A DNA stretch of 64,000 nucleotides from Mucidula mucida (taxonomy: Eukaryota > Basidiomycota > Agaricomycetes > Agaricales > Physalacriaceae), in the NCBI GenBank assembly GCA_015501055.1, contig JADNYV010000185.1, positions 1 through 64,000 of the forward strand, written 5' to 3'. Under the pieces are notes generated by a model that saw only the letters and a list, made by a program, of their open reading frames with translations, searched no databases and was not told the origin of the DNA. The number at the start of each line of letters is the position of its first letter. Within the stretch, counting starts at the first letter, position 1. Shown here piece by piece: positions 10,137-50,335 of the stretch. The translations under genes were made by a program, and so were the position numbers.

Positions 10137-13100
10137 ATGTCTGTCGACCCGACATCCATCATATCCATGATCGAGCAATGCATCAAGATCTACGACTACA
10201 TCGAAGCCGTCAGGGAATCCTTTAAGGAGCGACAACGCTTCATGCAGGAGGTAGCCGCCTTGAGAGATGTGCTCGTCAATCTCCAAGGCCTCCTCCAAGA
10301 CGACGCCTTCACCCAAAACCGTTCGTCGATGGCACCTCTCAAGGTCTTTTTCGACCCGACGAAGCCTTTCGTTGGATTGATAGAGAGGGATCTTGGTGAG
10401 CTGGAAGGAAAGCTGCGTGGAGCGACGAAAAAGGATAGGAGCGGCTGGCGTTTGTCATGGACGAAGGTGGTAGCCGCTGGGATGTGGCCACTGGACAAAG
10501 CCGAGAGCGAAGTTTTGTTCATTCGTCTCGAGCGTCACAAGAGCTTGATTTCATTAGCTATGCAGCACGACATCGAGTGAGTCTGATAACAGCGCACTTG
10601 AATATCATTGACATGAACTTTAGTCGGCTCATACACGCGGTTCTCGAGATGGCTGCAGATAGCAAGGGGCAACTGCCCGAGGTCACAGCAGCGGTTGCCG
10701 AGTTGACTCAAGTCATCGGAGTTGCTATCAGCTGTGCGTACATAATTCTCAAACATCTAGCCTTCGAATCCTCATGATCCTCAAGACGAAGAGCGCCGGA
10801 AAGTGGCCGAATGGATTTCAAATGTCACGTTCTCCGCTTACCATGCTGAGAACTCGCGCAAGTGGTTGAAAGGGACTGGCGGCTGGGTACTGGAGAGCTC
10901 GGAATTCCAGTCATGGGTGACCGGGACCTCGTCGCCGCCTGTACTGTGGTGCTACGGAGACGGTGAGTCGGTCTTCGATGTAAATCGGCGTTTTAGCTGA
11001 CTACCAGCCATCTCAGCGGGTGCTGGAAAGTCCGTTGCTGCGTGAGTTGCATCATATACACACCAGAGAGCAGTACTTAACATCGCTCTTCCAGTGCCAT
11101 GATTGTCGAGCACCTGCGATCCATCGCAGGGAACATAGTACTCGTCATTGTGTGCCGATATAACCAGAATCATGACTCCCTTCGCGAGACGCACGCCTTC
11201 ATATGCTGCCTGCTTCGTCAGCTGCTTCAACTCGACGCCACCTCAAGCGTCCCGCCATCGTTATTGGAATTGTACCGAAAGGATATATATCCATCGGAAG
11301 ATGGCGTTCGTACCCTCTTAATCGAGGCAGCCCGGCTCATTTCACGGCCCATTTTCATCGTTCTCGACGCACTCGACGAATGCCCTCTCGGATTTGATCT
11401 CGTGGCCGCCATTGAAAGTTTGGGACACGATTTTAATCTCCTCATTACCTCCCGCGACGTCTTCTCCCAGATAAAAGATTATCCATCTCTCCCCATTCGA
11501 GCTGCAGATCGTGACATCCTTGCTCTCGTTGATAGCAAGATCTCCAAATTGCGTTGGGTTTGTGAGGACGAGGATCTGCAAAGTGCCGTTCGCAGCGAGG
11601 TTGTTGCGAGAGCGAACGGCATGTTTCTGTTAGCGAGTCTAACGCTATGGGAGCTTGAGCACAACGTCGCCAGTAAAGTTGATGTCCGAAGGGTGCTCAC
11701 ATCCATTCCTGTCAGTTTAGATGATGCATATCACCAGATATTCGTGCGCATTGGCAAACAAGGTGCTAGGATGAAGCAACTTGCTCTTCAGGCCATTATG
11801 TGGATTTATGCCGATTTTGGCAACCCGGTTGACTGGAATAAGCTGTATTGGTGGGAGCTCAGGCTCGTTTTTGCTTGCAACATGATATCTATGTCCGGAT
11901 CTGACTTTCCTGAACCGCCATCCGCAAACACGATTGTGGATGCCTGTGGTGGCCTGGTCAGTGCTCCTAGAAATGTCGCATTTGCACCTGCATTCATCCG
12001 TACGCCGTGTTCTAGGTCTACACATTCATAGTTACTGATAAGTATACAGATTATTCGGTCCAGGAGTACATTTTCCGCTTTCAGTCTTCTGTGTTTCCCG
12101 AAGATCCCTATGAATTTGCTTTCAAATTCTGTATCACCGCTCTTTCCCGCATAGAAGGGCGCTATGCGGCTCACTTACGCCCAAGACTACAAATTGTATG
12201 GTATTGTCTTGCTCACAAACTGGATTCATACCAGCCTGTTGTTGTTCACTCTGCCTTGGCAGACGAAAACTTCACGAAATGCTTGAGCTATCGCGAGCAG
12301 ATCATCGGTTCACTTCGCCAGGGCGACGGCGGTCTCACTCCTCTTGATTACGCCGCAATACTCGGAATTCCTCATACATTTGGACTTGCTCAAGAAGTAC
12401 AGGCTCCGGACGAACGTCATTTTCGTCGCGTCACGACCGTCTTGATAAAACGGGATTACTGGGACGTCGTGCATAAGGTTTGGAAATGCGGGGACTATGA
12501 CATCAATATTTTCTGTGACGAGATCGGCTGTACCACTGCATGTAGACTTGTCACTTTCTCCACCTTTAGGGTCAGTGTGGAACTCTGTCGGTCATTCATT
12601 GACCATCCAAGTACTTCCCTATGTTGCCCGCGCCATGATAGCCTACTTGGCTGTGCATTATGTTACTGGGATGCGCGTCGGTGGTCCTGGTATGAGTGCG
12701 ACAGAGCACTCGAGAACATCAAATTAATCCTCGAACGCCTGTCCCGCGATACAACCAGTAATCCCTATCAGCCAACGCGGTTCCCGGTATATTCCCCTCC
12801 AAGTCCTCCGAGATCCCACCCCCCAGATATCCTCCATGTCATCGCAGTATTCCTGCAGAGAGCTAAGATAGATTTTGATGCGCACATCACGCATATGGTA
12901 CCCCCAGAGATCTTGCTTGCGCTGTTGATGCTTCCATGGCACACCCATCTCGATACACGAAAACAGGTGATACTGGAAGTACTACGTCCATACGCGCGAC
13001 GCCCGGTTGCCAATGTCCCCGATGTCAGCATTTCCGACCAAGTTCGCAATACAAAAGTGCTTGCCCATAACGCCATTTCCGACCGTGCGCCGCAAGTGCT

Positions 13101-15295: not shown

Positions 15296-15931
15296 CTAGT
15301 GGTAGTACTTGTCGTCGTGCTTGTCCTTCCCGTCGTGCTTGTCTTTCCAGTCATGCTTATCCTCCCAATCATGCTTATCCTCCCAATCGTGCTTGTACTT
15401 TTCGTCATGCTTGTCCTCCCAATCGTGCTTTCCCTCCCAGTCGTGCTTGTCCTTCCAATCATTATCCTTCCCGTCAGTGCGCTTGTACTTCCCATCGTGC
15501 TTATCCTTCCCGTACTTCTCTTTGTCGTCGTATTTATCCTTCCCGTCATGCTTGTCTTTCCAATCGTGCTTATCCTTCTCGTCGTGCTTATCATTGTTGC
15601 GTCTGTACTTCCCGTCGTATTTGTCCTTATCGTCATGTTTATCCTTCCAATCATCGTGTTTGTCATTCCAATTCTGAGTACGGAGACGGCGTTAGCAAAA
15701 CCGCTAAGCGCCGAAGACTATATGCATACCACCCTTGTCCTTGTAGTCTTTGTCTTTGTAATCTTCATCCTTGTCGTCGCAGTCCGTGTCTTTGTAGTCC
15801 TTATCCTTGTAGTCCTTGTGATCATAGTATTCTCTTCTGGCCACAGCGCGTGCGTCAAGTCGAGCGTGTAAGGCCGGGGCTGCGAGAGCAACCGCGGAGA
15901 GTGTTAAGACGGAGAGGATGTTGACCAACAT
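15296..15931 (-). CDS. Secreted Asp/Lys/His-rich repeat protein
   Basis: Starts at ATG 15931 with a clear signal peptide (MLVNILSVLTLSAVALAAPA), a short pro-like region with R-R, then runs of DYKDKDYKD. After a probable intron (GTATGC at about 15729 to CTCAG at 15674) the frame that is open to the TAG at 15296 is a long series of KHDW, KDKHD and KYDGK repeats, about 125 residues of almost only D, K, H, W, Y and G. The obvious splice leaves the two parts out of phase by one codon position, so the exact junction is unresolved, or there is a frameshift. A TATA-like TATTTAAG lies about 65 bp upstream. Function unknown; the composition would allow metal binding. The long plus-strand frames over this region are antisense shadows of the repeat. 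Confidence 0.65.
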
Positions 15932-18554: not shown

Positions 18555-18774
18555 TTTACTCACGAATACTCACGAATATAAGAATACTCATGAGTATTCA
18601 CGAATATTTATGAGTATGAGTCTATCGAGTATTCGTGGCCCCAAACTGAAACTCTAGACTCACCATAGACTCTAGACTCTACTCTACTCACGTGCGAGTA
18701 TACTCTTGGCTTGCATGATGAGTATGAGTTTATTCGTGAGTACTTTTTTTATTCTATACTCGCGTCCGACTCTA
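18555..18774. repeat. hAT right subterminal repeat array
   Basis: Clustered copies of TACTCACGAATA and GAGTATTCGTGAG plus AGACTCTAGACTC units between the transposase 5' end and the terminal repeat. Confidence 0.75.
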
Positions 18775-21657
18775 CCTTTGGCTCGGACTGCACTGCAGAC
18801 GTGTTGGTCTTCCGTCGTGAGGCGTATCCTCCGAGAAGAATAACCTCAACCTCCCTATCCTCGCACTCCTCATCCTCAGAGCTCGTCGATTCCTTGTGAA
18901 TTCCAGGGATGGTGTAGTACGGTGCGTAGTGATTCCGTCGCAAGTTCAAGAAGAAGCGGTAATCATTGCACAGTGCATTATTTGTCAGCCGGTTTGCCTC
19001 TCTGACAAGATGCTTGCAAAGGAGAAACCGGCTGATGAGATAGGATGGACAAGAGCACGTCCAACGCTCCACCGAAGTGTGGTACTTCCCACGCGGTCGA
19101 TCACGCTCGGCTTCAATATCTGCAAGACGTTCTGCGCGTGCCGATCCCTTACGCGACGTGTCTTTAAGGCATGCAAGCTCCTGCTCCATGGATCGAAGCT
19201 CATTGGGCTTGCTCATGCTGCGCCAATCTTGAGCAAAGCTTGATTGCCACGGAGCAAGAGCTTTTGGTCGTCCCAGGCGTCGGTGATCTTGTAGGTAAGC
19301 CACCTTCCGATTAATCCGCGGAAGGAGAAACTTCAACATAACATGAGTTACCAGATCAAGACGTGGACGATTGAACTGCGGGAGGTCGCGCCGCTTGATT
19401 TGACGCCAGAGGGACTCCACAATCATTGTCGTCTTCAACCGCGGAATTGCATCACATGCAGCACGTGCCCACAGAATCCACTGTTTCGGAGTATACCAGC
19501 GGTTCCACAGGTATGCCCATACTTGAGATAGGTCCCGCTCAAAGCAGAAGTTGTAGATGTCTTGGACTGCCCGGCGATGGATTTCATCGCTGGAGAGCAT
19601 CGTCCCGGCGGTATCATTGATGGGGATGGAAGGGTGCTGATGGAGATGAACTCGGAATTTTTCGATAATGGGCTTTCGGTGCTCTTTAGGGCAAAAGAGG
19701 GGAAGATCTTGACTACGCGCGGCGGGAGGAGCTGGGTAAACCGGGGTACGAGTGTCACCCAGTTTAAGGATCATCACCGGAGGACGACAAGTTGGTACCG
19801 GCGGCGGCTTTAGAGGCTCGCGTCGTGGCTGAGGAATGTTCTCCATAGTTGTAAGATTGATGTGAATCTTGAGCGGCTCCAGTTCGTCAGGTGGATCAAT
19901 AGAGTCCGGATGGACACCATCCTCAACGAGACCAGATGTAACACCGGGTGCCCAGGTAGGATCAATGAAGTCGAAGATTTTGTTGGCCCTACGAGGGTCA
20001 TACGCCGCCGGGGGTTTATCCTCTCCAAGTCGCGTCTTGATGTAGCGAATCGAATGCCAATAGCAAAGCTGATGCTTCGCCTGCGGCATCTTAGCCTGAA
20101 ATGCATTGATCTCGGATGTCTCCTTATCCGAGTCGGTGAACTTGATATTCGGACATCGCTTTGCAATAAAATCGATGAAGTCCTGGAGCATGAGATCCTT
20201 GGTACCGGGCTCAGCAGTCCCGTCCGACGTTGTAAAAATAAAGGCAATAGGAACCGCACATCCATTGAGCTCTGCAACGAGGCTGTAAAGCTCATACCCG
20301 GCTTGATTGGTTTTCCCTATTCAGCTAGCTGTCAGAACGGCCTCATCTAAAATAAATCACGTACATGTTGAATCCATGGCTACCTCAGTAGTTTCTGCTC
20401 CAATTGCATCAAGCGGCTCTTTTAGTGCAAACGCGATGGCGTGGATTCCCGGACGCGGTGTGATCGGGATCACCTGAGTCGTGTAGTCTTCCACGCTCCG
20501 AATAAGTTTCTCGGCAGACTTAACTTGGTCATTGTCAAGCCTCCATTCCTTCTCACTCTGGTGCATCCATTCACTGTATACCTGCTTCTCCGTATATTCA
20601 TTGTCTGGGTTGTCGGCCAAGATTTTATCCCAAATCTAGGTAATTAAATGTAAGAATCAGAAATATTGGAAGGACATCATAATCACCTTCGATGGGGCGA
20701 GATGCTTGAGATCCCTTATGAGATCCTTCTGTTTCTGCCCAAGATTGATGTCCACGTATGGTGTATGCGCGTGGTGATGCATCAATTGAATGCGCGCGGT
20801 AGATGCATCATCATTCGCGAAGGTCACGCGCAACCATCCGTTACAGGCAAAACGATCCATCTTCATTCGCATACGCTGCCTCTTAGGGTCTTCTACAAGC
20901 CTTTCCTTTGTCTCCTGCCCTTTGAGCTGGGCACAGAAGAAAACAAATGTTCTGGATCCGGAGTCACTGTCACGGTAGTGCTTATATCTGTTCCGTGGAA
21001 CATTAGTACATAAAGAAGGAAATCTGATGGATACACGTACATGAATCGATAGTCTGTCAGATTTCTGATCTCGCGGGCCACTTGACGCGCCATGAGAGCA
21101 CTTTCCACGGGTTGAGTCACATGATCAGCTGGATCGCTGACCGTATCATCATTTGCGGTGACTTGTATCTCGGTCAGAAGCGCGTCAAGATGGACAACTG
21201 CTTCGAATTCGAAGGCATGGCCCTTATGGTCACGTATCATCTTAGCCGCTTCATGCCATTCCATTTCTGATAGCACACCCGTGGTTGGTGGCCGAGTAGA
21301 CGTTTGGGCAGAAGCGGAAGTACTATTGTTCTCCTTTGACGCGTCGGATGTATTAGTGTGCCTTCGAGTCGTGTCCCGGGTATCGCAGGAGACACATTTC
21401 TTCTTATATCCAAGGTTTTTAGTGCGGGGGAAGGTCGAGACTTTGCCACGGTATTTGCAGTGGGAGCACTTGCGCTCTTCTAATCATTTCAGTAGAATGC
21501 AGGGTATAAGTAATGACAGTAGTATCACTTACCTTCCTCTTTCGACGTGTCAGATGCGTTATTACTCATACTTGCAGAGGACAGCAGTCTATAGACGCAC
21601 ACAAGTACATATTCCGGCACCAATTTGTCGTGGGAATTGATTAACTAATCCCATAAG

Positions 21658-25400: not shown

Positions 25401-25620
25401 TAGTCATGGATAAAGCGGGGAAGTCGGACATGCATTGCGTTTGCTTGAGCAGAAAGCAGAGTACAAATCGCCTCGCTTTCCTCTCTAAACATCCAACTGA
25501 TAGCAGCAAAACATCCTGGTTCGTCTCAATCAACATCGAGTTCTTGGTATCACTGTTTCCCAATTCATCTCGTGAATGCGCCTTGGCAAAAAGCGCGTTC
25601 AGTTCCCTGAGAATATAGAT
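22471..25620. other. Unassigned 3.1-kb stretch
   Basis: Many overlapping short frames on both strands, the longest 160 codons (24260-24742 minus) and 143 codons (24459-24890 plus), without domain motifs, signal peptides or credible intron sets. There may be fast-evolving or decayed genes here, but I cannot support any. Confidence 0.4.
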
Positions 25621-27850
25621 AGTACTCGTGATTGTTTGCCGGTATAACCAAAATCGCGATTATTTTTGCGAGACGCACACCTTCATCTGCTGTCTGCTTC
25701 GTCAGGTGCTACAACTCGACGCCGCTTCAAGCGTCCCACCTTCTTTGCTGGATTTGTATCGAAAGGACATACAGCCATCGGAAGATGACGTTCGTACCCT
25801 CTTGATAGAGGCAGCCCGGCTCATTTCACGCCCCGTCTTCATTGTCCTGGACGCGCTTGACGAATGCCCCCTGGGTTTCGCGCTTGTAGCTGCTATTCAG
25901 GGCCTGGGAAACGGATTTAATCTTCTCGTCACCTCTCGAAACGTCTTCTCCCAGATCAAAGAATATCCATCTCTCCATATTCGAGCCGCAGATCGTGACA
26001 TCCTTGCGCTCGTCGATAGCAAGATCCCCAGTTTACGTTGGGTATGCGAAGACGAGGATCTGCAGAGTTCCGTTCGCAGTGAAGTTGTGGCAAAAGCGAA
26101 TGGGATGTTTCTCTTAGCGAGTCTCACGCTATGGGAGCTGGAGCACGACCTCACCAGTAAAAGCGATGTCCGCAGGGTGCTAGCATCCATTCCTGCTAGC
26201 TTAGACGACGCATATCACCAGATTTTCGTGCGCATTGGCAACCAAGGTGTGAGGAGACAGAACCTTGCTCTTCACGCCATCATGTGGGCCTATGCCTGGC
26301 ACAAGTCCCGTGTTGAAGTGTCGTGGGCGATGCTCAGAGTGTTTCTTGCATGCGGGATCTCTACGTCTGAGCCTGGATTTCAGGACGACCGTATGCCTTC
26401 TGTGGATGATATTGTAAACACCTGTGGTGGCCTGCTTAGTGCCGTCGCGACGGACTTTACTGAAGCTAGACCTTCATTCATCCGTACGTGCTCTATGTTC
26501 AAACATTCTTAGTTACTAATGAGTATCCTTGAATTTGCAGATTATTCAGTTCAAGAGTACATTTATCGCTCTCAATCTTCCGTATTTCCCGAAAATCCCT
26601 TGGGCTTCATATTCAAGAACTGTACCGCTGCTCTGTGTCACATGGAACACCTGAGACGTCGCGATTTACGCGTTCTCATACCACGTTTATGGCTCGACCT
26701 TGCTCGTATCATGGATTCTCATCAACCAATTCTTTTGCAATCTGCCTTGGCAGACAGAAACTTCACTAGTAAACGCATAGTCCCGTTTCGCAAGGCGGAT
26801 TATTGGTATTCTACCACTTGGGGAATTTCTTCCCTTTGGGTCAGAGATTTACTCCACAGAGGCGACAGCAGTCTTACTCCTCTTGATTACGCTGCAGCTT
26901 TTAGACTCCCTCATACGTTTCAACTCGCTCGAGAAACCCAGGCTCCGGACGAGCATCAGTTTCGTCGGGCAATGACAATTCTGATTAGAGAACATCACTG
27001 GGACCTCGTCCATGACCTTTGGGCACACGGGGACTACGATATTAACATTTTCTGCGACATCATGGGCAACACTGCCGTATGTGAACTCGTCGCTTACTCA
27101 GAACAGTGGCCGTCGCAGTCTATTGAGGAACTCCGCCGGTCATTTCTTCATCACCCAAGTACTTCACTGTATTGCCCGCGGCACGAGAGCCTGATCGGCT
27201 GCGCAATCTGTCACTTGGACACACCGTGCGGGTGCAGATACCACAATGATCCTTGCAACCGAGGATTCGAGAACACTATCGCAATCATCCTCGAACGCAT
27301 CTGCCGCGATACAACCAGTAAACCAGGTCAGTCAGCCCGCTTCGCGGTCTATCCTCCCCCAGATTCTCCAAGATCCCACCCCCCAGATATTCTCAATATC
27401 ATCGCAATATTCCTGCAGAGAGCAGATATCGATCTCGATGCGCACATCACGCAGATGATGCCCCCCGAGATACTGCTCAGCTTGTTAGCAGTGTCTTGGT
27501 ACAATGCATCATGGTACCTGTTGCATAGGTCTTTCAGAGGTCTCCTTCGACCGTACGCACGACGCCCTGATATCCAGAACATCCGTACCCAAGTTCCCGA
27601 AGCTGACTGTCAGCCTCCTATCCTTGTTCCCACCACCACAGCAGTCGGAATAACGGATGGGGCCGCGCGACACGACACATCCGAATATGTCGAGGGCATA
27701 CCTTCTGGTGAAGCGCTTGACGATGTCATTGTTGACACATCGCTAATAGTTGGGGGAAGAATGACGCGTCGTGTTATGGCGGTCCTTCTTGTAGGAACCA
27801 TTCTCATTTGTCTATGGATGTTTTCGTGCACATGTCGTGGACATATATAG
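25621..27850 (+). pseudogene. 5'-truncated NACHT STAND gene, paralogue of 10137-13458
   Basis: Homology to the first NACHT gene begins abruptly near 25621 inside its large fifth exon (from LVIVCRYNQN) and continues to the end. Two exons remain: to 26483 and from 26541 to 27850, with the same splice positions. Walker B (VFIVLDALDEC) and LLVTSRN are kept, but the N-terminal domain and Walker A exons are absent and the upstream DNA is unrelated. The rest is open: 294 codons plus about 436 after the intron, ending in a hydrophobic segment (VMAVLLVGTILICLWMF) as in the paralogue. Without Walker A it cannot be a normal NTPase. The long open frames suggest recent truncation or use as a fragment. Confidence 0.85.
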
Positions 27851-32986: not shown

Positions 32987-32993
32987 TATAAAA
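32987..32993 (+). promoter_or_regulatory. TATA box of the repeat-peptide precursor gene
   Basis: TATAAAA 62 bp before the start codon at 33055, followed by a C-rich pyrimidine leader (accccccctcacacac). This is the arrangement of strongly expressed fungal genes. Confidence 0.6.
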
Positions 32994-33054: not shown

Positions 33055-34157
33055 ATGCGATTCGATATCTTCGTTGTCCTCACCTCTGTATTTGCTGCTG
33101 CTGCGGCTCTAGTAAGTCCCGTACCTGTCTCCGCAAGTCATGCAGCTGATCTGGGCACAAGGACGAGCGAAGCACCTGGAAACCTCGGGGAAGTTCCCAG
33201 GCGAGGGGGGAAGCCAGTGTTAGTGTTGGTGTCGCCGCCATGTAGTCCCTCTCAACCGCATCTAGGTCATTGAAGCGGAGAAGCGCACCGACGATATCCA
33301 CGTCAACGTAGGCATTAGGCTTTTCTTGTGCGCGCCGACGCTGACCGGCTTTACGGAATATGCAGCTTGTGGGTGCCGGACAGTCGTGGAAACGGGCGGT
33401 ATGCCGTTATCGCCATTCAGTATTCGCTGAATCTGTAACTGCTTGCGATAGGTGGTCGATGGGGATGACAATCTAAAGCGCGAGGCGGTGAGTGAAACTC
33501 CTAATCAATGCGGTCTTTGTCCTCATGAACATGCCAAGCTCGTTGGGGCTGGACAGTCGTGGAAGCGAGAGGCCGAAGCCGTACGTGGCGAACATATCGA
33601 CGCTATAAGTATGGCGACTTATGCAACACTGATAGATGGTCGGAGCTGGACAGTCGTGGAAGCGGGAAGCCGATGCCGTACGTCACAAATGTCCACAAGG
33701 AGAATTAACGTCTGATAAGTACTGACAGATGGTCGGCGCCGGACAGTCTTGGAAGCGTGATGATGCTGAAGCCGTGCGTGCATCGCGTGAACGCTGGTAC
33801 GACCTATACTCACGACACGTTAATAGGTTGAGTTGCGGAAGGTGTCCATGCGTGAGGCGGATCCCGTGCGTTGAGCTGATAGAGCAGGTATAATTACTGA
33901 CACCGTCATAGATGGTCGGCGCGGGACAGTCCTGGAAGCCGCGCGAAGCTGCACCTGTAAGTCGATGTTCATTCCAGAAGGACACAGCTGGATTAAATTT
34001 TGATCTTCTAGATGGTCGGTGCAGGCCAGTCATGGCGACGTGATCCTGAAGCGATGGCGAAGCCTGTCAGTGCCTTTCTTGCAAAACACCGGTATTGTTA
34101 GACTGACCAGCCGCGTAGATGGTTGGAGCAGGACAAAGTTGGCGTCGAGACGACTGA
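33055..34157 (+). CDS. Secreted Kex2-processed repeat-peptide precursor, one peptide per exon (11 exons)
   Basis: Exons 33055-33216, 33266-33307, 33366-33398, 33452-33487, 33539-33580, 33636-33677, 33729-33773, 33827-33865, 33912-33956, 34012-34065 and 34119-34157; every exon is a multiple of three and every intron (46-58 bp) is phase 0, giving 192 residues. Exon 1 encodes a signal peptide (MRFDIFVVLTSVFAAAAAL) and a pro-region ending PRRGGKP. Exon 2 holds VIEAEKR. Exons 3, 5, 6, 7, 9, 10 and 11 each encode (L/M)VGAGQSW followed by KR, RR or KPR and an acidic/Ala spacer such as EAEA, EADA or DDAEA. Exons 4 (VVDGDDNLKREA) and 8 (VELRKVSMREADP) are divergent units. KR followed by EAEA is the Kex2/Ste13 cue of yeast alpha-factor, so the expected product is many copies of an octapeptide ending in Trp. 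Role (pheromone-like signal, RiPP precursor or surface peptide) is unknown. No UstYa-like or other tailoring gene was recognised nearby. Confidence 0.85.
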
Positions 34158-42507: not shown

Positions 42508-44174
42508 TCATCTCGCCGCCGCCAACCTCTGGAGAAGAGCTATCATCGCAGCAGCACCAATCTTACCTCCAGGACCTCTTCTTCCAAAGCCCTCCTCATC
42601 CGAAGTGTCTACGTCGTCGTCCATATCCTCATCCGAGTCATTTTCATCTTCATCCATATCCTCATCGTCATCGTCAGGCTGTCTGTACGGCCCCCACTGC
42701 TTTTCAGGGTCCAGCCCGACCATGCGCCGCACAAGCCCAAACTCGTTATCATTAGCACACGTCGGCAACGCCACAAACTTGTCATCATCACCGAACGTCG
42801 TGTAAAACTCCCTATCGCCAACCATCGACTGGTCCCTTGCATCGCTCGTAATCGCGTCCAAAGCGTACTCGACCTTGCCGCCCTTGTCAAAGAAGAACGT
42901 TGTCTCGTGCGAGTAGGCGGAAAGCGCGTGAGAACGAACAATATCTGCGGTAAATGGGGAAGAACGCTTGAGAATATCAAATGCAGCGCGGAAGACGGCA
43001 GTGAAGCCCCGGTAGAAGGAGAGATAGAGGCTTGGGTAGAGCGAGGGCGGGATAATTTCACCATTATACAGAGAGTCGACGTCAGAGCCGTCGATGATTT
43101 GTCGTCTCTCGAACATAAAAGCCCCCTCCATGGGCATGGTGTCCATACTGAAGGCGGCTTTTACTTTGATCCAGGCGTTAGAAAGACGCATGAATGGTGT
43201 ACGGCAACATACCGGTTGGCTGGAAGATCATTCGAGGTGAGAGCCATCCACCCAGGCAACGTCCGCAGGTGCATCCATACTTGTTCTGGTCGATATAATC
43301 TTGCACGGTCGCACAGCCAGTGTCCATCCCCATTGCGGTCTTTGCTGCGTACTCCATCGACAGATCGGCATCCGAGTACCCGGTCCAACTGGCAGAAAGC
43401 ATTGTCTCCATAAACTCGCGTCCACTCACCATACTATCGCGTAGAACTTGCACGGGCGTAGCTCCGTCAGTGTTGTGGTGATTCTGCAGGTCATCGACGC
43501 GTCCGAGCTCAAGAAGCGTGTCGAAGGCTAATTTGTTCTTCGCTTGGACCGCGACATGCATGGGTAGAAAGCCGACTTGGTCAGGCGCATAGAGTGACTG
43601 AGAATCGGCTTCGTGAGCGTGGCGGATGAGTTGTGCAATGGACCCGGACGCGTCTGAAACGATGGCGCAATGGATGGGGAAATTCTGCTGACGTTCGCGC
43701 TTGATGTTGTCTGACATCTCGTAAGGGTCCTGGCCGTTGGCGAGCATTTCGTGATAGGGAGGTTGAGGTGGAAGAGAAAATTCTTCCCTGACACTTTGCT
43801 GCACGTCTTCGGAAGCCAGAATTCGGTGGGAGGGATGTTCGGGGTCCATACTGTAACCGAAGAACTGCGTGCGTCCTATTCTTCTGAATCCGTTCTGGGG
43901 TCGAATCATTAGCATATACGCGCACGCTTGACCTGATAAACCAACCTTGATGAAGAAGGGCCACAGAGAACTCGTGCAATTCCTGGATTTCTTCGTCCAT
44001 CATCCCGAGAAAGTCTCCGCCAAGCATGCGTCAATAGATCAGGTACCCAGACAGAGTGGCGACCTCGCCGAGCGTAGGATGCGTAGCCGTCCCGCAGAGC
44101 GTTTGGAGCTGCCAGTTTTCATAGCCTTTTTCGAGCGTGAAAGAGTATACGAGGTCATTGAGTGAGGTCGACAT
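42508..44174 (-). pseudogene. Ankyrin-type protein with CxCxxC motif, copy 1 (premature stop)
   Basis: ATG 44174 (MSTSLNDLVYSFTLEK), an intron near 43950, then ankyrin-like repeats (NFPIHCAIVSDASGSIAQLI; GFLPMHVAVQAKNKLAFDTLLELG; NTDGATPVQVL), a YGCTCGRCLGGWLSPRM motif, an intron near 43190 and a C-terminal part ending in an acidic D/E run. Everything is open except codon TGA at 44031-44033, where copy 2 has CGA (Arg). A single C-to-T change thus truncates it after about 47 residues. Function unknown; the pattern looks like a lineage-specific family of intracellular proteins. Paralogue at 48560-50335. The 313-codon plus-strand frame over this gene is an antisense shadow. Confidence 0.8.
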
Positions 44175-48559: not shown

Positions 48560-50335
48560 TTACCCTTGATTCACCTGCAGCAACCTCTGCATAAACGCCA
48601 TCATCGCAGCCGAATCAAGCATCCCTCCCGAAGCCATTCCCCCAAAGACCTCCTCATCCGAATCGTCGTCATCTCGTGACCGGTTATACGGCGCCCACTG
48701 CTTCTTGGGATCCAACCCCACCATACGCCTCACAAGTCCAAACTCATTATCATTAGTACACGTCGGCAACGCCACAAACGCTTCATCATCACCAAACGTC
48801 GCGTAGAAGTCCCGATCCCCGATCATCGACTGGTTACTGGCACCGCTCGTAGTCGCGTCCAAAACGTACTCGACCTTGCCGCCCTTGTTGAAGAAAAAGT
48901 TCGTCTCGTATGTGTACCGCGTGCGAACGAACAGTATCCGCGGTCAGTAGGGAAGAACGCTCGAGAACCTCATACGCAGCACGGAAGACGACAGTGTAAC
49001 CACGGTAGAAAGAGAGATAGAGGTTCGGGTAGTGCAAGGGAGGGATGAATTCACCGTTGTACAGCGAGCGAACGTCGAAGGCGTCAATAGCTTGTCGTTT
49101 CTTGAACATCAAATCCCCGATAACAGGCATAGTGTCCATGCTGAGTGCGGCTTGTACTTTGATCTAGGCGTCAGGAAAACCCATACGTCACGGGCAATCT
49201 ACACACCTTCGAGCTGGTACATCATGCGAGGCGAGAGCCATCCGCCAAGGCAACGTCCACAGGTACATCCATGCTTGTTCTGGTTGATATAATCTTGCAG
49301 AGTCGCACATCCGGTGTCCATCCCCATCGCGGTCTTCGCTGCGTATTCCATCGAAAGCTCGACATCCGAGCACCCGGACCATTTGGCAGAAAGCAGCGTC
49401 TCCGTGAACTCGCGGTCATTCACCATACCGTTGCGAAGTAATTCCACGGGCGTAGCTCCATCAGCGTTGTGGTGATTCTGGAGATCCTCGGCGCGTCCAA
49501 GTTCAAGAAGCGTATTGAAGGCGATCGTGTTCTTCGAGCGCACCGCCACATGCATGGGTAGAAAGCCGACTTGATCGGGCGCGTAGAGTGACTGAGGCTC
49601 AGCTTCGTGAGCGCGGCGTATGACTTGTGCGATGGATTCGGACATGTCCGAAAACATGGCGCGATGGAGGCAGAGGAAATTCTTCCTTGACACTTTGGTG
49701 CACGTCATCGGAAGCCAGGAGTCGATGCGAAGGATGTTTGGGGTCCGTACGCCTATTCTTCTAAATCCGTTCTGTGTCCAATCATTATCAGAGAGCGAAC
49801 TGGGGACTAACCTTGGCGAAAAACGCATTCACTCCCGGGTCGTTTTTGGCAAACGGCCAGGACACGATATTCGATATTTGCGATTTATGCTCCGATTCGC
49901 GCAGTCCTTTTAGTAGGAGCGAGCCACTTCCTTTCCGGCGATACTTGGAAAAAATGAGCGCGCAATATAATTCAGATGAGCAAGGCTTACCTCGTCCTTG
50001 ACGGTAATGTCTGCGATATAAGCCAGCGCATCGTCATTCAACTCGTCGCCCCAACAACCAGTGCCGCTGCGATATCCAGTCTTGAGCCGAGGTTTTAGGA
50101 TTCCGTTTCTGTCAAAGAGGGCGATACCGAATTCGTGTATTTCATCGCTTTCCATGTCCATCATCACGAGAAAGTTGCCATCCAGCATGCATCGATAGAT
50201 CAGGTACCCAGAAAGAGTGGCGACCTCGCCGAGCGTAGGATCCGTAGCGGTCTCGTGCAGCGTTTGGAGCTGCCAGTGTTCGAGGCTTTCTTCGAGCGTG
50301 AAAGAGAATACCAGGTCATTGAAGGAGGTAGACAT
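48560..50335 (-). pseudogene. Ankyrin-type protein with CxCxxC motif, copy 2 (frameshifted)
   Basis: ATG 50335 (MSTSFNDLVFSFTLEES) opens a first exon of 141 codons that keeps Arg (CGA) at the site mutated to a stop in copy 1. After the intron the ankyrin part (GFLPMHVAVRSKNTIAFNTLLELG) and HGCTCGRCLGGWLSPRM are kept, but about 120 bp between NGFRRIG and the first repeat is deleted and shifted. Near 48925 an 8-bp deletion relative to copy 1 (after VRSHA) shifts the frame again before the C-terminal part (48862-48560). So copy 2 is dead for reasons different from copy 1. Confidence 0.82.

What the first reader, a model, noticed from the sequence alone, without database searches (positions are those of the whole stretch)
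33055..34157. One-peptide-per-exon secreted precursor with alpha-factor-like processing sites
Seen: eleven exons, all multiples of three, all introns phase 0. Exon 1 encodes a signal peptide and pro-region; seven tiny exons each encode (L/M)VGAGQSW plus a dibasic site and an EAEA/EADA/DDAEA-type spacer. Known: KR followed by EA dipeptides is the Kex2 then Ste13 cue of ascomycete alpha-pheromone, and Kex2-processed repeat proteins (Ustilago Rep1, UstA-type RiPP precursors) exist in fungi, normally with repeats inside one or few exons. Inferred: peptide number here evolves by duplicating symmetric micro-exons, which cannot disturb the frame, and alternative splicing could change peptide dose or mix. 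Basidiomycete pheromones are usually farnesylated CaaX peptides, so an alpha-factor-like precursor in this group would be new.
Basis: partly seen in the sequence, partly recalled or inferred. Interest (0 to 1): 0.93.

Follow-up and report, generated by a model that had tools for sequence, protein, structure and literature searches.

The report
Mushroom peptide gene, one copy per exon
A gene in what is most likely the porcelain fungus appears to encode a secreted precursor cut into seven near-identical short peptides, each on its own tiny exon; precursors of this kind are already known from mushrooms, but this exon-by-exon layout was not found in the papers searched.

Summary
At 33055-34157 (+) eleven exons, all multiples of three and all phase 0, splice into a 157-aa precursor: signal peptide, pro-segment, seven exons each with one (L/M)VGAGQSW, and two exons without the core. 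The genome is most likely Mucidula mucida. The copy on contig C926 has identical exons. VGAGQSW is invariant in 7 of 7 copies although synonymous sites are near saturation (pS 0.83). Six of seven copies stand behind X-A/X-P dipeptides only, the Ste13 cue. The two public models found here contain no GQSW.

It works like an alpha-factor precursor, but that is not new for basidiomycetes. KEX2-processed repeat proteins with STE13 signatures and C-terminal Trp are published, and Pleurotus MSGVAADW/LSGVAADW were detected by mass spectrometry (PMC9769878). Two related genes in this genome carry several peptides per exon. Proteins of like layout turned up in six named basidiomycetes, three with E below 0.01. 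The apparently new part is one peptide per symmetric micro-exon. Splicing, processing and function are untested. Verdict: a new variant of a known kind.

The parts
32987..32992 (+). TATA-like element (TATAAA) 68 nt upstream of the ATG
   Evidence: consensus only
33055..33111 (+). exon 1: MRFDIFVVLTSVFAAAAAL, signal peptide
   Evidence: hydrophobic core seen by eye, no signal-peptide predictor run
33266..33307 (+). exon 2: VIEAEKRTDDIHVN, pro-segment with first KR
33366..33398 (+). exon 3: LVGAGQSW-KR-A, peptide copy 1
33452..33487 (+). exon 4: VVDGDDNLKREA, no core; gives KR-EA in front of copy 2
33539..33580 (+). exon 5: LVGAGQSW-KR-EAEA, copy 2 (acceptor CAAG, non-YAG)
33636..33677 (+). exon 6: MVGAGQSW-KR-EADA, copy 3
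33729..33773 (+). exon 7: MVGAGQSW-KR-DDAEA, copy 4
33827..33865 (+). exon 8: VELRKVSMREADP, no core; single R, then EADP in front of copy 5
33912..33956 (+). exon 9: MVGAGQSW-KPR-EAAP, copy 5
34012..34065 (+). exon 10: MVGAGQSW-RR-DPEAMAKP, copy 6
34119..34157 (+). exon 11: MVGAGQSW-RR-DD-stop, copy 7 (Ser codon AGT)

Best explanation
This is an alpha-pheromone-like KEX2-processed repeat protein (KEP) gene of the C-terminal-tryptophan class. Shown from sequence: a signal-like first exon, seven invariant cores, dibasic sites and X-A/X-P spacers. Inferred: the spliced precursor enters the secretory pathway, Kex2 cuts after KR/RR (and after PR or single R in exons 9 and 8), Kex1 trims the basic residues to leave a free C-terminal Trp, and a Ste13-type dipeptidyl aminopeptidase strips EA/DA/DP/AP/MA/KP pairs up to the first M-V or L-V. 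The products would be linear MVGAGQSW (5 copies) and LVGAGQSW (2 copies, the first perhaps left with an N-terminal extension). They most likely act as an extracellular signal to the fungus itself or to neighbours, recognised mainly through the C-terminal G-x-S/P-W end shared with the two related genes. Because each peptide sits on its own symmetric phase-0 exon, copies can be lost or skipped without breaking the frame.
For: Gene structure. Core identical in 7 of 7 copies with synonymous pS 0.83 over 21 pairs. Spacers in front of copies 2-7 (EA, EAEA, EADA, EADP, EAAP, DPEAMAKP; read by hand) give 13 of 13 X-A/X-P dipeptides; a permutation formula run on those counts gives 1.3e-6 (shared descent weakens it). 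Two related genes with phase-0 introns only: C1/C1000 (10 GQSW) and C804 (NGPGKSW, QYAPGGGKPW x2, QFAPGGGKSW). The public model P0007 of the C804 gene equals my splice, made beforehand, letter for letter. The assembly has Pfam matches for the kexin P domain and the DPPIV N-domain. Proteins of like layout: over P0008-P0018, 44 of 53 W[KR]R sites are followed by X-A/X-P (summed). Published processing of such precursors in Pleurotus and, on heterologous expression, for C. cinerea KEP 490115: PMC9769878.
Against: No transcript or peptide data for this gene. Copy 1 follows KR-TDDIHVN and breaks the Ste13 rule. Only 3 of 6 W[KR]R sites are followed directly by X-A/X-P; the others precede a core-less exon or the stop. 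The DDAEA spacer of exon 7 does not fit, though no core follows it. Some C1 spacers also break the rule (KR-DDEVEARA, RR-SN). Exon 9 lacks a dibasic site. One acceptor, one donor and several branch sites are off consensus. The C926 copy differs at no exon base, but with 5 substitutions in 2.8 kb that says little about selection. DPPIV_N and P_proprotein matches do not prove Ste13 or Kex2 activity. Six C. cinerea KEP knockouts had no phenotype, so self-signalling is unproven.
Confidence: 0.86

Rival explanations
1. Secreted peptides aimed at other organisms (competitors, bacteria, animals, wood hosts) rather than self-signalling; same gene and processing, different target.
For: The PMC9769878 discussion prefers interaction with the biotic environment because kep knockouts had no axenic phenotype.
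Against: Synthetic peptides of that study showed no antibacterial activity against the strains tested. A small neutral peptide held invariant over seven copies suits receptor recognition (inference).
Confidence: 0.35
2. Dikaritin/ustiloxin-type RiPP precursor: the cores are cyclised by UstYa-family enzymes and become a modified natural product.
For: Same precursor logic (signal, repeats, Kex2 sites). The genome has 15 exon-level UstYa (PF11807) matches. PMC7329392 states that 17 of 76 KEPs resembling the putative basidiomycete pheromones have a DUF3328 (UstYa) neighbour (passage).
Against: None of the 15 matches (a lower bound) lies on C144 or C926. The core lacks Tyr, the usual crosslinked residue (recalled). 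The closest published relatives give linear peptides.
Confidence: 0.06
3. A true mating pheromone of the alpha type acting through a Ste2-like receptor.
For: Alpha-factor-like layout; one W-terminal related gene (C804:11814-12208) lies about 15 kb from STE3 receptor sequence (C804:27191-28222).
Against: No STE2 (PF02116) match in the assembly, but no control genome rang either, so inconclusive. STE3 gave 27 exon-level matches, none on C144 or C926. Basidiomycete mating pheromones are stated to be a-type (passages).
Confidence: 0.05
4. Decaying or non-coding repeat array mistaken for exons.
For: Public models P0004/P0005 start here but contain no GQSW; exons 4 and 8 lack cores; some splice signals are weak.
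Against: No amino-acid change in 7 cores against near-saturated synonymous change; GT-AG at every unit; the C804 gene is annotated with the same splicing logic.
Confidence: 0.03

Closest known systems
Pleurotus ostreatus KEP 1091723 and P. eryngii KEP 1439342 (peptides MSGVAADW, LSGVAADW, SGVAADW; PMC9769878, Results parts 1-2 read)
   Same: Secreted repeat precursor, Kex2 sites, STE13 dipeptides, 8-residue cores with M or L first and W last; peptides seen by mass spectrometry.
   Different: Middle of the core differs (SGVAAD versus VGAGQS); exon layout is not given in the parts I read, and their sequences were not compared here.
Coprinopsis cinerea KEP 490115 (QYKAPSW, QMRPPSW; PMC9769878)
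   Same: STE13 spacers, C-terminal Trp; the C804 core QYAPGGGKPW starts with the same QY.
   Different: Peptides seen after expression in Pichia; gene structure not compared here.
Mucidula related genes C1:1016167-1016807 and C804:11814-12208
   Same: Exon 1 is the signal peptide, all introns phase 0, G-Q/K-S/P-W-KR-EA units.
   Different: 2-5 peptides per repeat-bearing exon (C1) or 4 in one exon (C804), not one per exon.
Ascomycete alpha-factor/alpha-pheromone precursors
   Same: Signal, KR + EA/DA spacers, tandem cores.
   Different: Core looks different and receptor class is not shown; repeats usually inside one or few exons (recalled).
Schistosome micro-exon genes (MEGs; PMC4350168, passages seen)
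   Same: Secreted products from many very small symmetric exons.
   Different: Architectural likeness only; MEG isoforms vary a protein, here each exon would be one releasable peptide.

Membership tests
KEX2-processed repeat protein (KEP) | N-terminal signal peptide | tested here: inconclusive
   Exon 1 looks like a hydrophobic signal by eye; no signal-peptide predictor was available.
KEX2-processed repeat protein (KEP) | Repeated cores separated by Kex2 sites | tested here: met
   7 identical VGAGQSW cores, 6 of 7 directly followed by KR/RR.
Alpha-pheromone-like KEP with STE13 signature | X-A/X-P dipeptides between the Kex2 site and the core | tested here: met
   Copies 2-7: 13 of 13 dipeptides; copy 1 does not fit; copies 5 and 6 follow a single R and P-R.
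W-terminal basidiomycete KEP class | Core ends in Trp at the Kex2 site | tested here: met
   7 of 7 cores end in W; 11 further proteins (P0008-P0018) have 2-8 W[KR]R sites each.
Ascomycete alpha-pheromone (mating) | Ste2-type receptor and role in mating | tested here: inconclusive
   PF02116: 0 matches, but no control genome rang; mating role not testable.
Dikaritin RiPP | UstYa-family gene beside the precursor | tested here: not met
   15 exon-level matches genome-wide (lower bound), none on C144 or C926.
Schistosome MEG | Homology to MEG families | not tested
   Only an architectural likeness from passages of PMC4350168.

The most novel reading that the evidence does not exclude
Basidiomycetes run a second peptide channel beside lipid pheromones, using fast-changing peptides that keep a C-terminal Trp. 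In Mucidula one gene has been turned into a cassette of symmetric micro-exons, so that alternative splicing sets the number and the M/L mix of peptides per precursor.
Probability: 0.15. Interest if true: 0.85.

Novelty: new variant of a known kind. Interest (0 to 1): 0.52.

Why it matters
The two public gene models found at this place contain none of the peptides, so KEP surveys built on predicted proteomes may overlook micro-exon precursors. This gene and its two multi-copy-per-exon relatives in one genome offer a natural comparison for how repeat number evolves, by exon or by in-exon repeat. The gene also gives defined octapeptides that can be synthesised to ask what W-terminal mushroom peptides do, which PMC9769878 leaves open.

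Tried and rejected
L081, the only relative returned from genome contigs (1 of 78 stretches), looks like a bacterial simple-repeat coincidence and was dropped. The viral contigs pattern scan gave 21 stretches with one exact match each, so no array by that pattern; I did not study them further. P0003 and P0006 look like unrelated repeats by eye and were not used. P0001, at first taken as a foreign homolog, is identical to the C1 gene read through its first intron and is not counted as independent. One search gave 68 hits (29 for the reversed control), 16 of them at the known KEP loci. I fetched regions around 19 of the other 52, plus C804. Apart from C804, none showed tandem W[KR]R in a repeat context; seven had two scattered W[KR]R matches that I judged unrelated by eye. 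Other micro-exon KEPs elsewhere in the genome are not excluded. The intron-homology test gave no support for recent exon-plus-intron duplication. No Pfam hit for the precursor at E 0.01 and no PDB sequence hit at E 1. The bacterial-type promoter/terminator scan does not apply to a fungus. No structure prediction was run.

The claim that the layout is not in print rests (0 papers each) and on the listings (6; 14; 9; 6), in a held open-access library only. Of the listed papers I opened PMC6339444, PMC7329392, PMC9769878 and PMC10885120 (passages or sections); PMC4350168 and PMC12929423 were opened from other searches (passages). The rest were seen as listings. In PMC6339444, PMC7329392 and PMC10885120 the words exon and intron were not found; in PMC9769878 exon was not found and intron occurs once, about cDNA cloning. 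No supplement was read.

Full report
Identity of the genome. The window is contig C144 of a 59.9-Mb, 1047-contig assembly, and the same gene lies on C926. Proteins P0004 and P0005, named Mucidula mucida (Agaricales, Physalacriaceae), start with this exon 1 read into intron 1. Window 29000-32200 matches only itself and C926:136750-139957, at 99%, and C926:140000-142800 aligns at 99.5%. I read C926 as the allele on the other haplotype of a dikaryon (inference).

The gene. Splicing by GT-AG rules gives eleven exons, all phase 0: MRFDIFVVLTSVFAAAAAL / VIEAEKRTDDIHVN / LVGAGQSWKRA / VVDGDDNLKREA / LVGAGQSWKREAEA / MVGAGQSWKREADA / MVGAGQSWKRDDAEA / VELRKVSMREADP / MVGAGQSWKPREAAP / MVGAGQSWRRDPEAMAKP / MVGAGQSWRRDD. 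The C926 copy has the same exons and protein; its 5 substitutions and 3 indels lie in intron 1, intron 8 and the flanks. Skipping any of the nine internal exons keeps the frame. Retaining an intron shifts the frame or adds a stop for 9 of 10 introns; only intron 4 (51 nt, no stop, in front of the odd AAG acceptor) would read through. That intron is the most likely place for a retained-intron isoform (inference). Splice signals are good but not perfect: 9 of 10 donors fit GTRNGY, 9 of 10 acceptors are YAG, and a CTRAY motif at 15-25 nt from the 3' end is present in 4 of 10 introns.

Selection. The seven cores are identical as VGAGQSW, yet they differ by 4.33 bases on average over 21 pairs, all synonymous, with about 5.24 synonymous sites (pS 0.83). 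The residue before the core is L (2 copies) or M (5). A star simulation of random changes that leave the peptide intact gives a joint probability near 3e-14. It is rough: it assumes a star tree, a consensus ancestor and equal rates, the core was delimited after seeing it, and the seventh copy was floored at 1/20000. Introns 2-10 show no clear mutual homology: 36 pairs, best z 2.9, mean 0.29. So the exons are old copies held by selection on the peptide, or the introns have turned over; the sequence cannot say which.

Processing logic. In front of copies 2-7 stand EA, EAEA, EADA, EADP, EAAP and DPEAMAKP: 13 of 13 dipeptides have A or P second, although the letters vary (read by hand; formula). 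Copy 1 follows KR-TDDIHVN and does not fit. DDAEA after copy 4 does not fit either, but it precedes core-less exon 8. Counted the other way, 3 of 6 W[KR]R sites are directly followed by X-A/X-P. The assembly holds DPPIV_N matches on C227 and C590 and kexin P-domain matches on C305 and C340, each probably one gene on two haplotypes (inference). Trimming should stop at M-V or L-V, giving MVGAGQSW and LVGAGQSW (inference).

Family. The same genome has two related genes. C1:1016167-1016807 (second copy on C1000) has four exons, all introns phase 0, and ten GQSW cores spread 5, 2 and 3 over exons 2-4; some of its spacers break the Ste13 rule. C804:11814-12208 has three exons, phase 0, with NGPGKSW, QYAPGGGKPW twice and QFAPGGGKSW. 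I spliced C804 before seeing the public model P0007 (CPB85DRAFT_1437440), which equals it exactly; whether that model rests on transcripts I do not know. The last exons of the window gene and of C1 both carry CAA-AGY for Gln-Ser followed by W-R-R (seen), a hint that the terminal exons are homologous. A profile search with the three precursors found 15 proteins with E at most 10 among the 7993 candidates scored, a capped list. Three of them are these genes or the window itself (P0007, P0001, P0002) and one is an unrelated-looking repeat (P0003). The other eleven (P0008-P0018) all have W before a dibasic site, 53 such sites, 44 of them followed by X-A/X-P (summed). Six come from named basidiomycetes: Amanita thiersii and Macrolepiota fuliginosa (E 4.9e-3 each), Sanghuangporus weigelae (7.2e-3), Volvariella volvacea (0.077), Marasmius crinis-equi (1.8) and Ceraceosorus bombacis (4.9) (sequences). 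The last three rest on layout more than on score, and common descent is not shown.

Literature. Le Marquer et al. 2019 (PMC6339444; passages and section 15 seen) report basidiomycete KEPs with STE13 signatures and suggest hormone-like roles. Vogt et al. 2022 (PMC9769878; abstract, Results parts 1-2 of 3 and Discussion read) detect MSGVAADW, LSGVAADW and SGVAADW in Pleurotus, mention many basidiomycete KEPs with STE13 motifs and C-terminal Trp, and find no phenotype for six kep knockouts. Umemura 2020 (PMC7329392; passages seen) counts 1680 KEPs in 317 basidiomycete strains, 103 of them with a DUF3328 (UstYa) neighbour. The class and its alpha-factor likeness are therefore known. I found no text on one peptide per exon (mostly as listings); subscription journals, preprints and supplements were not searched.

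Judgement. The gene is convincing in sequence terms. It belongs to a known class, with a gene architecture that I did not find described. Splicing, expression, processing and function remain to be shown.

Noticed in passing
G000 C804:11814-12208 and C804:27191-28222: A W-terminal KEP gene lies about 15 kb from STE3 receptor sequence; only one of three KEP loci shows this and it may be chance.
   Followed up: partly
window 33488-33538: Intron 4 is the only intron that could be retained without stop or frameshift, and its acceptor is non-YAG (AAG).
   Followed up: partly
window 15296-15691 (-): Open frame of K/D/H-rich repeats (KDKHDW-like) over an 18-nt tandem array, no Pfam hit.
   Followed up: no
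window 11081-12028 and 25619-26509 (+): Two similar-looking open frames, both matching Pfam NPHP3_N, a domain I recall from NACHT/NLR-like proteins of fungi.
   Followed up: no
window 18752-20320 (-): MULE transposase domain match, a DNA transposon remnant or copy.
   Followed up: no
window 43181-43999 (-) and 49202-49828 (-): Two open frames sharing the stretch GCTCGRCLGGWLSPRM and other similar parts, likely a local gene duplication, no Pfam hit.
   Followed up: no
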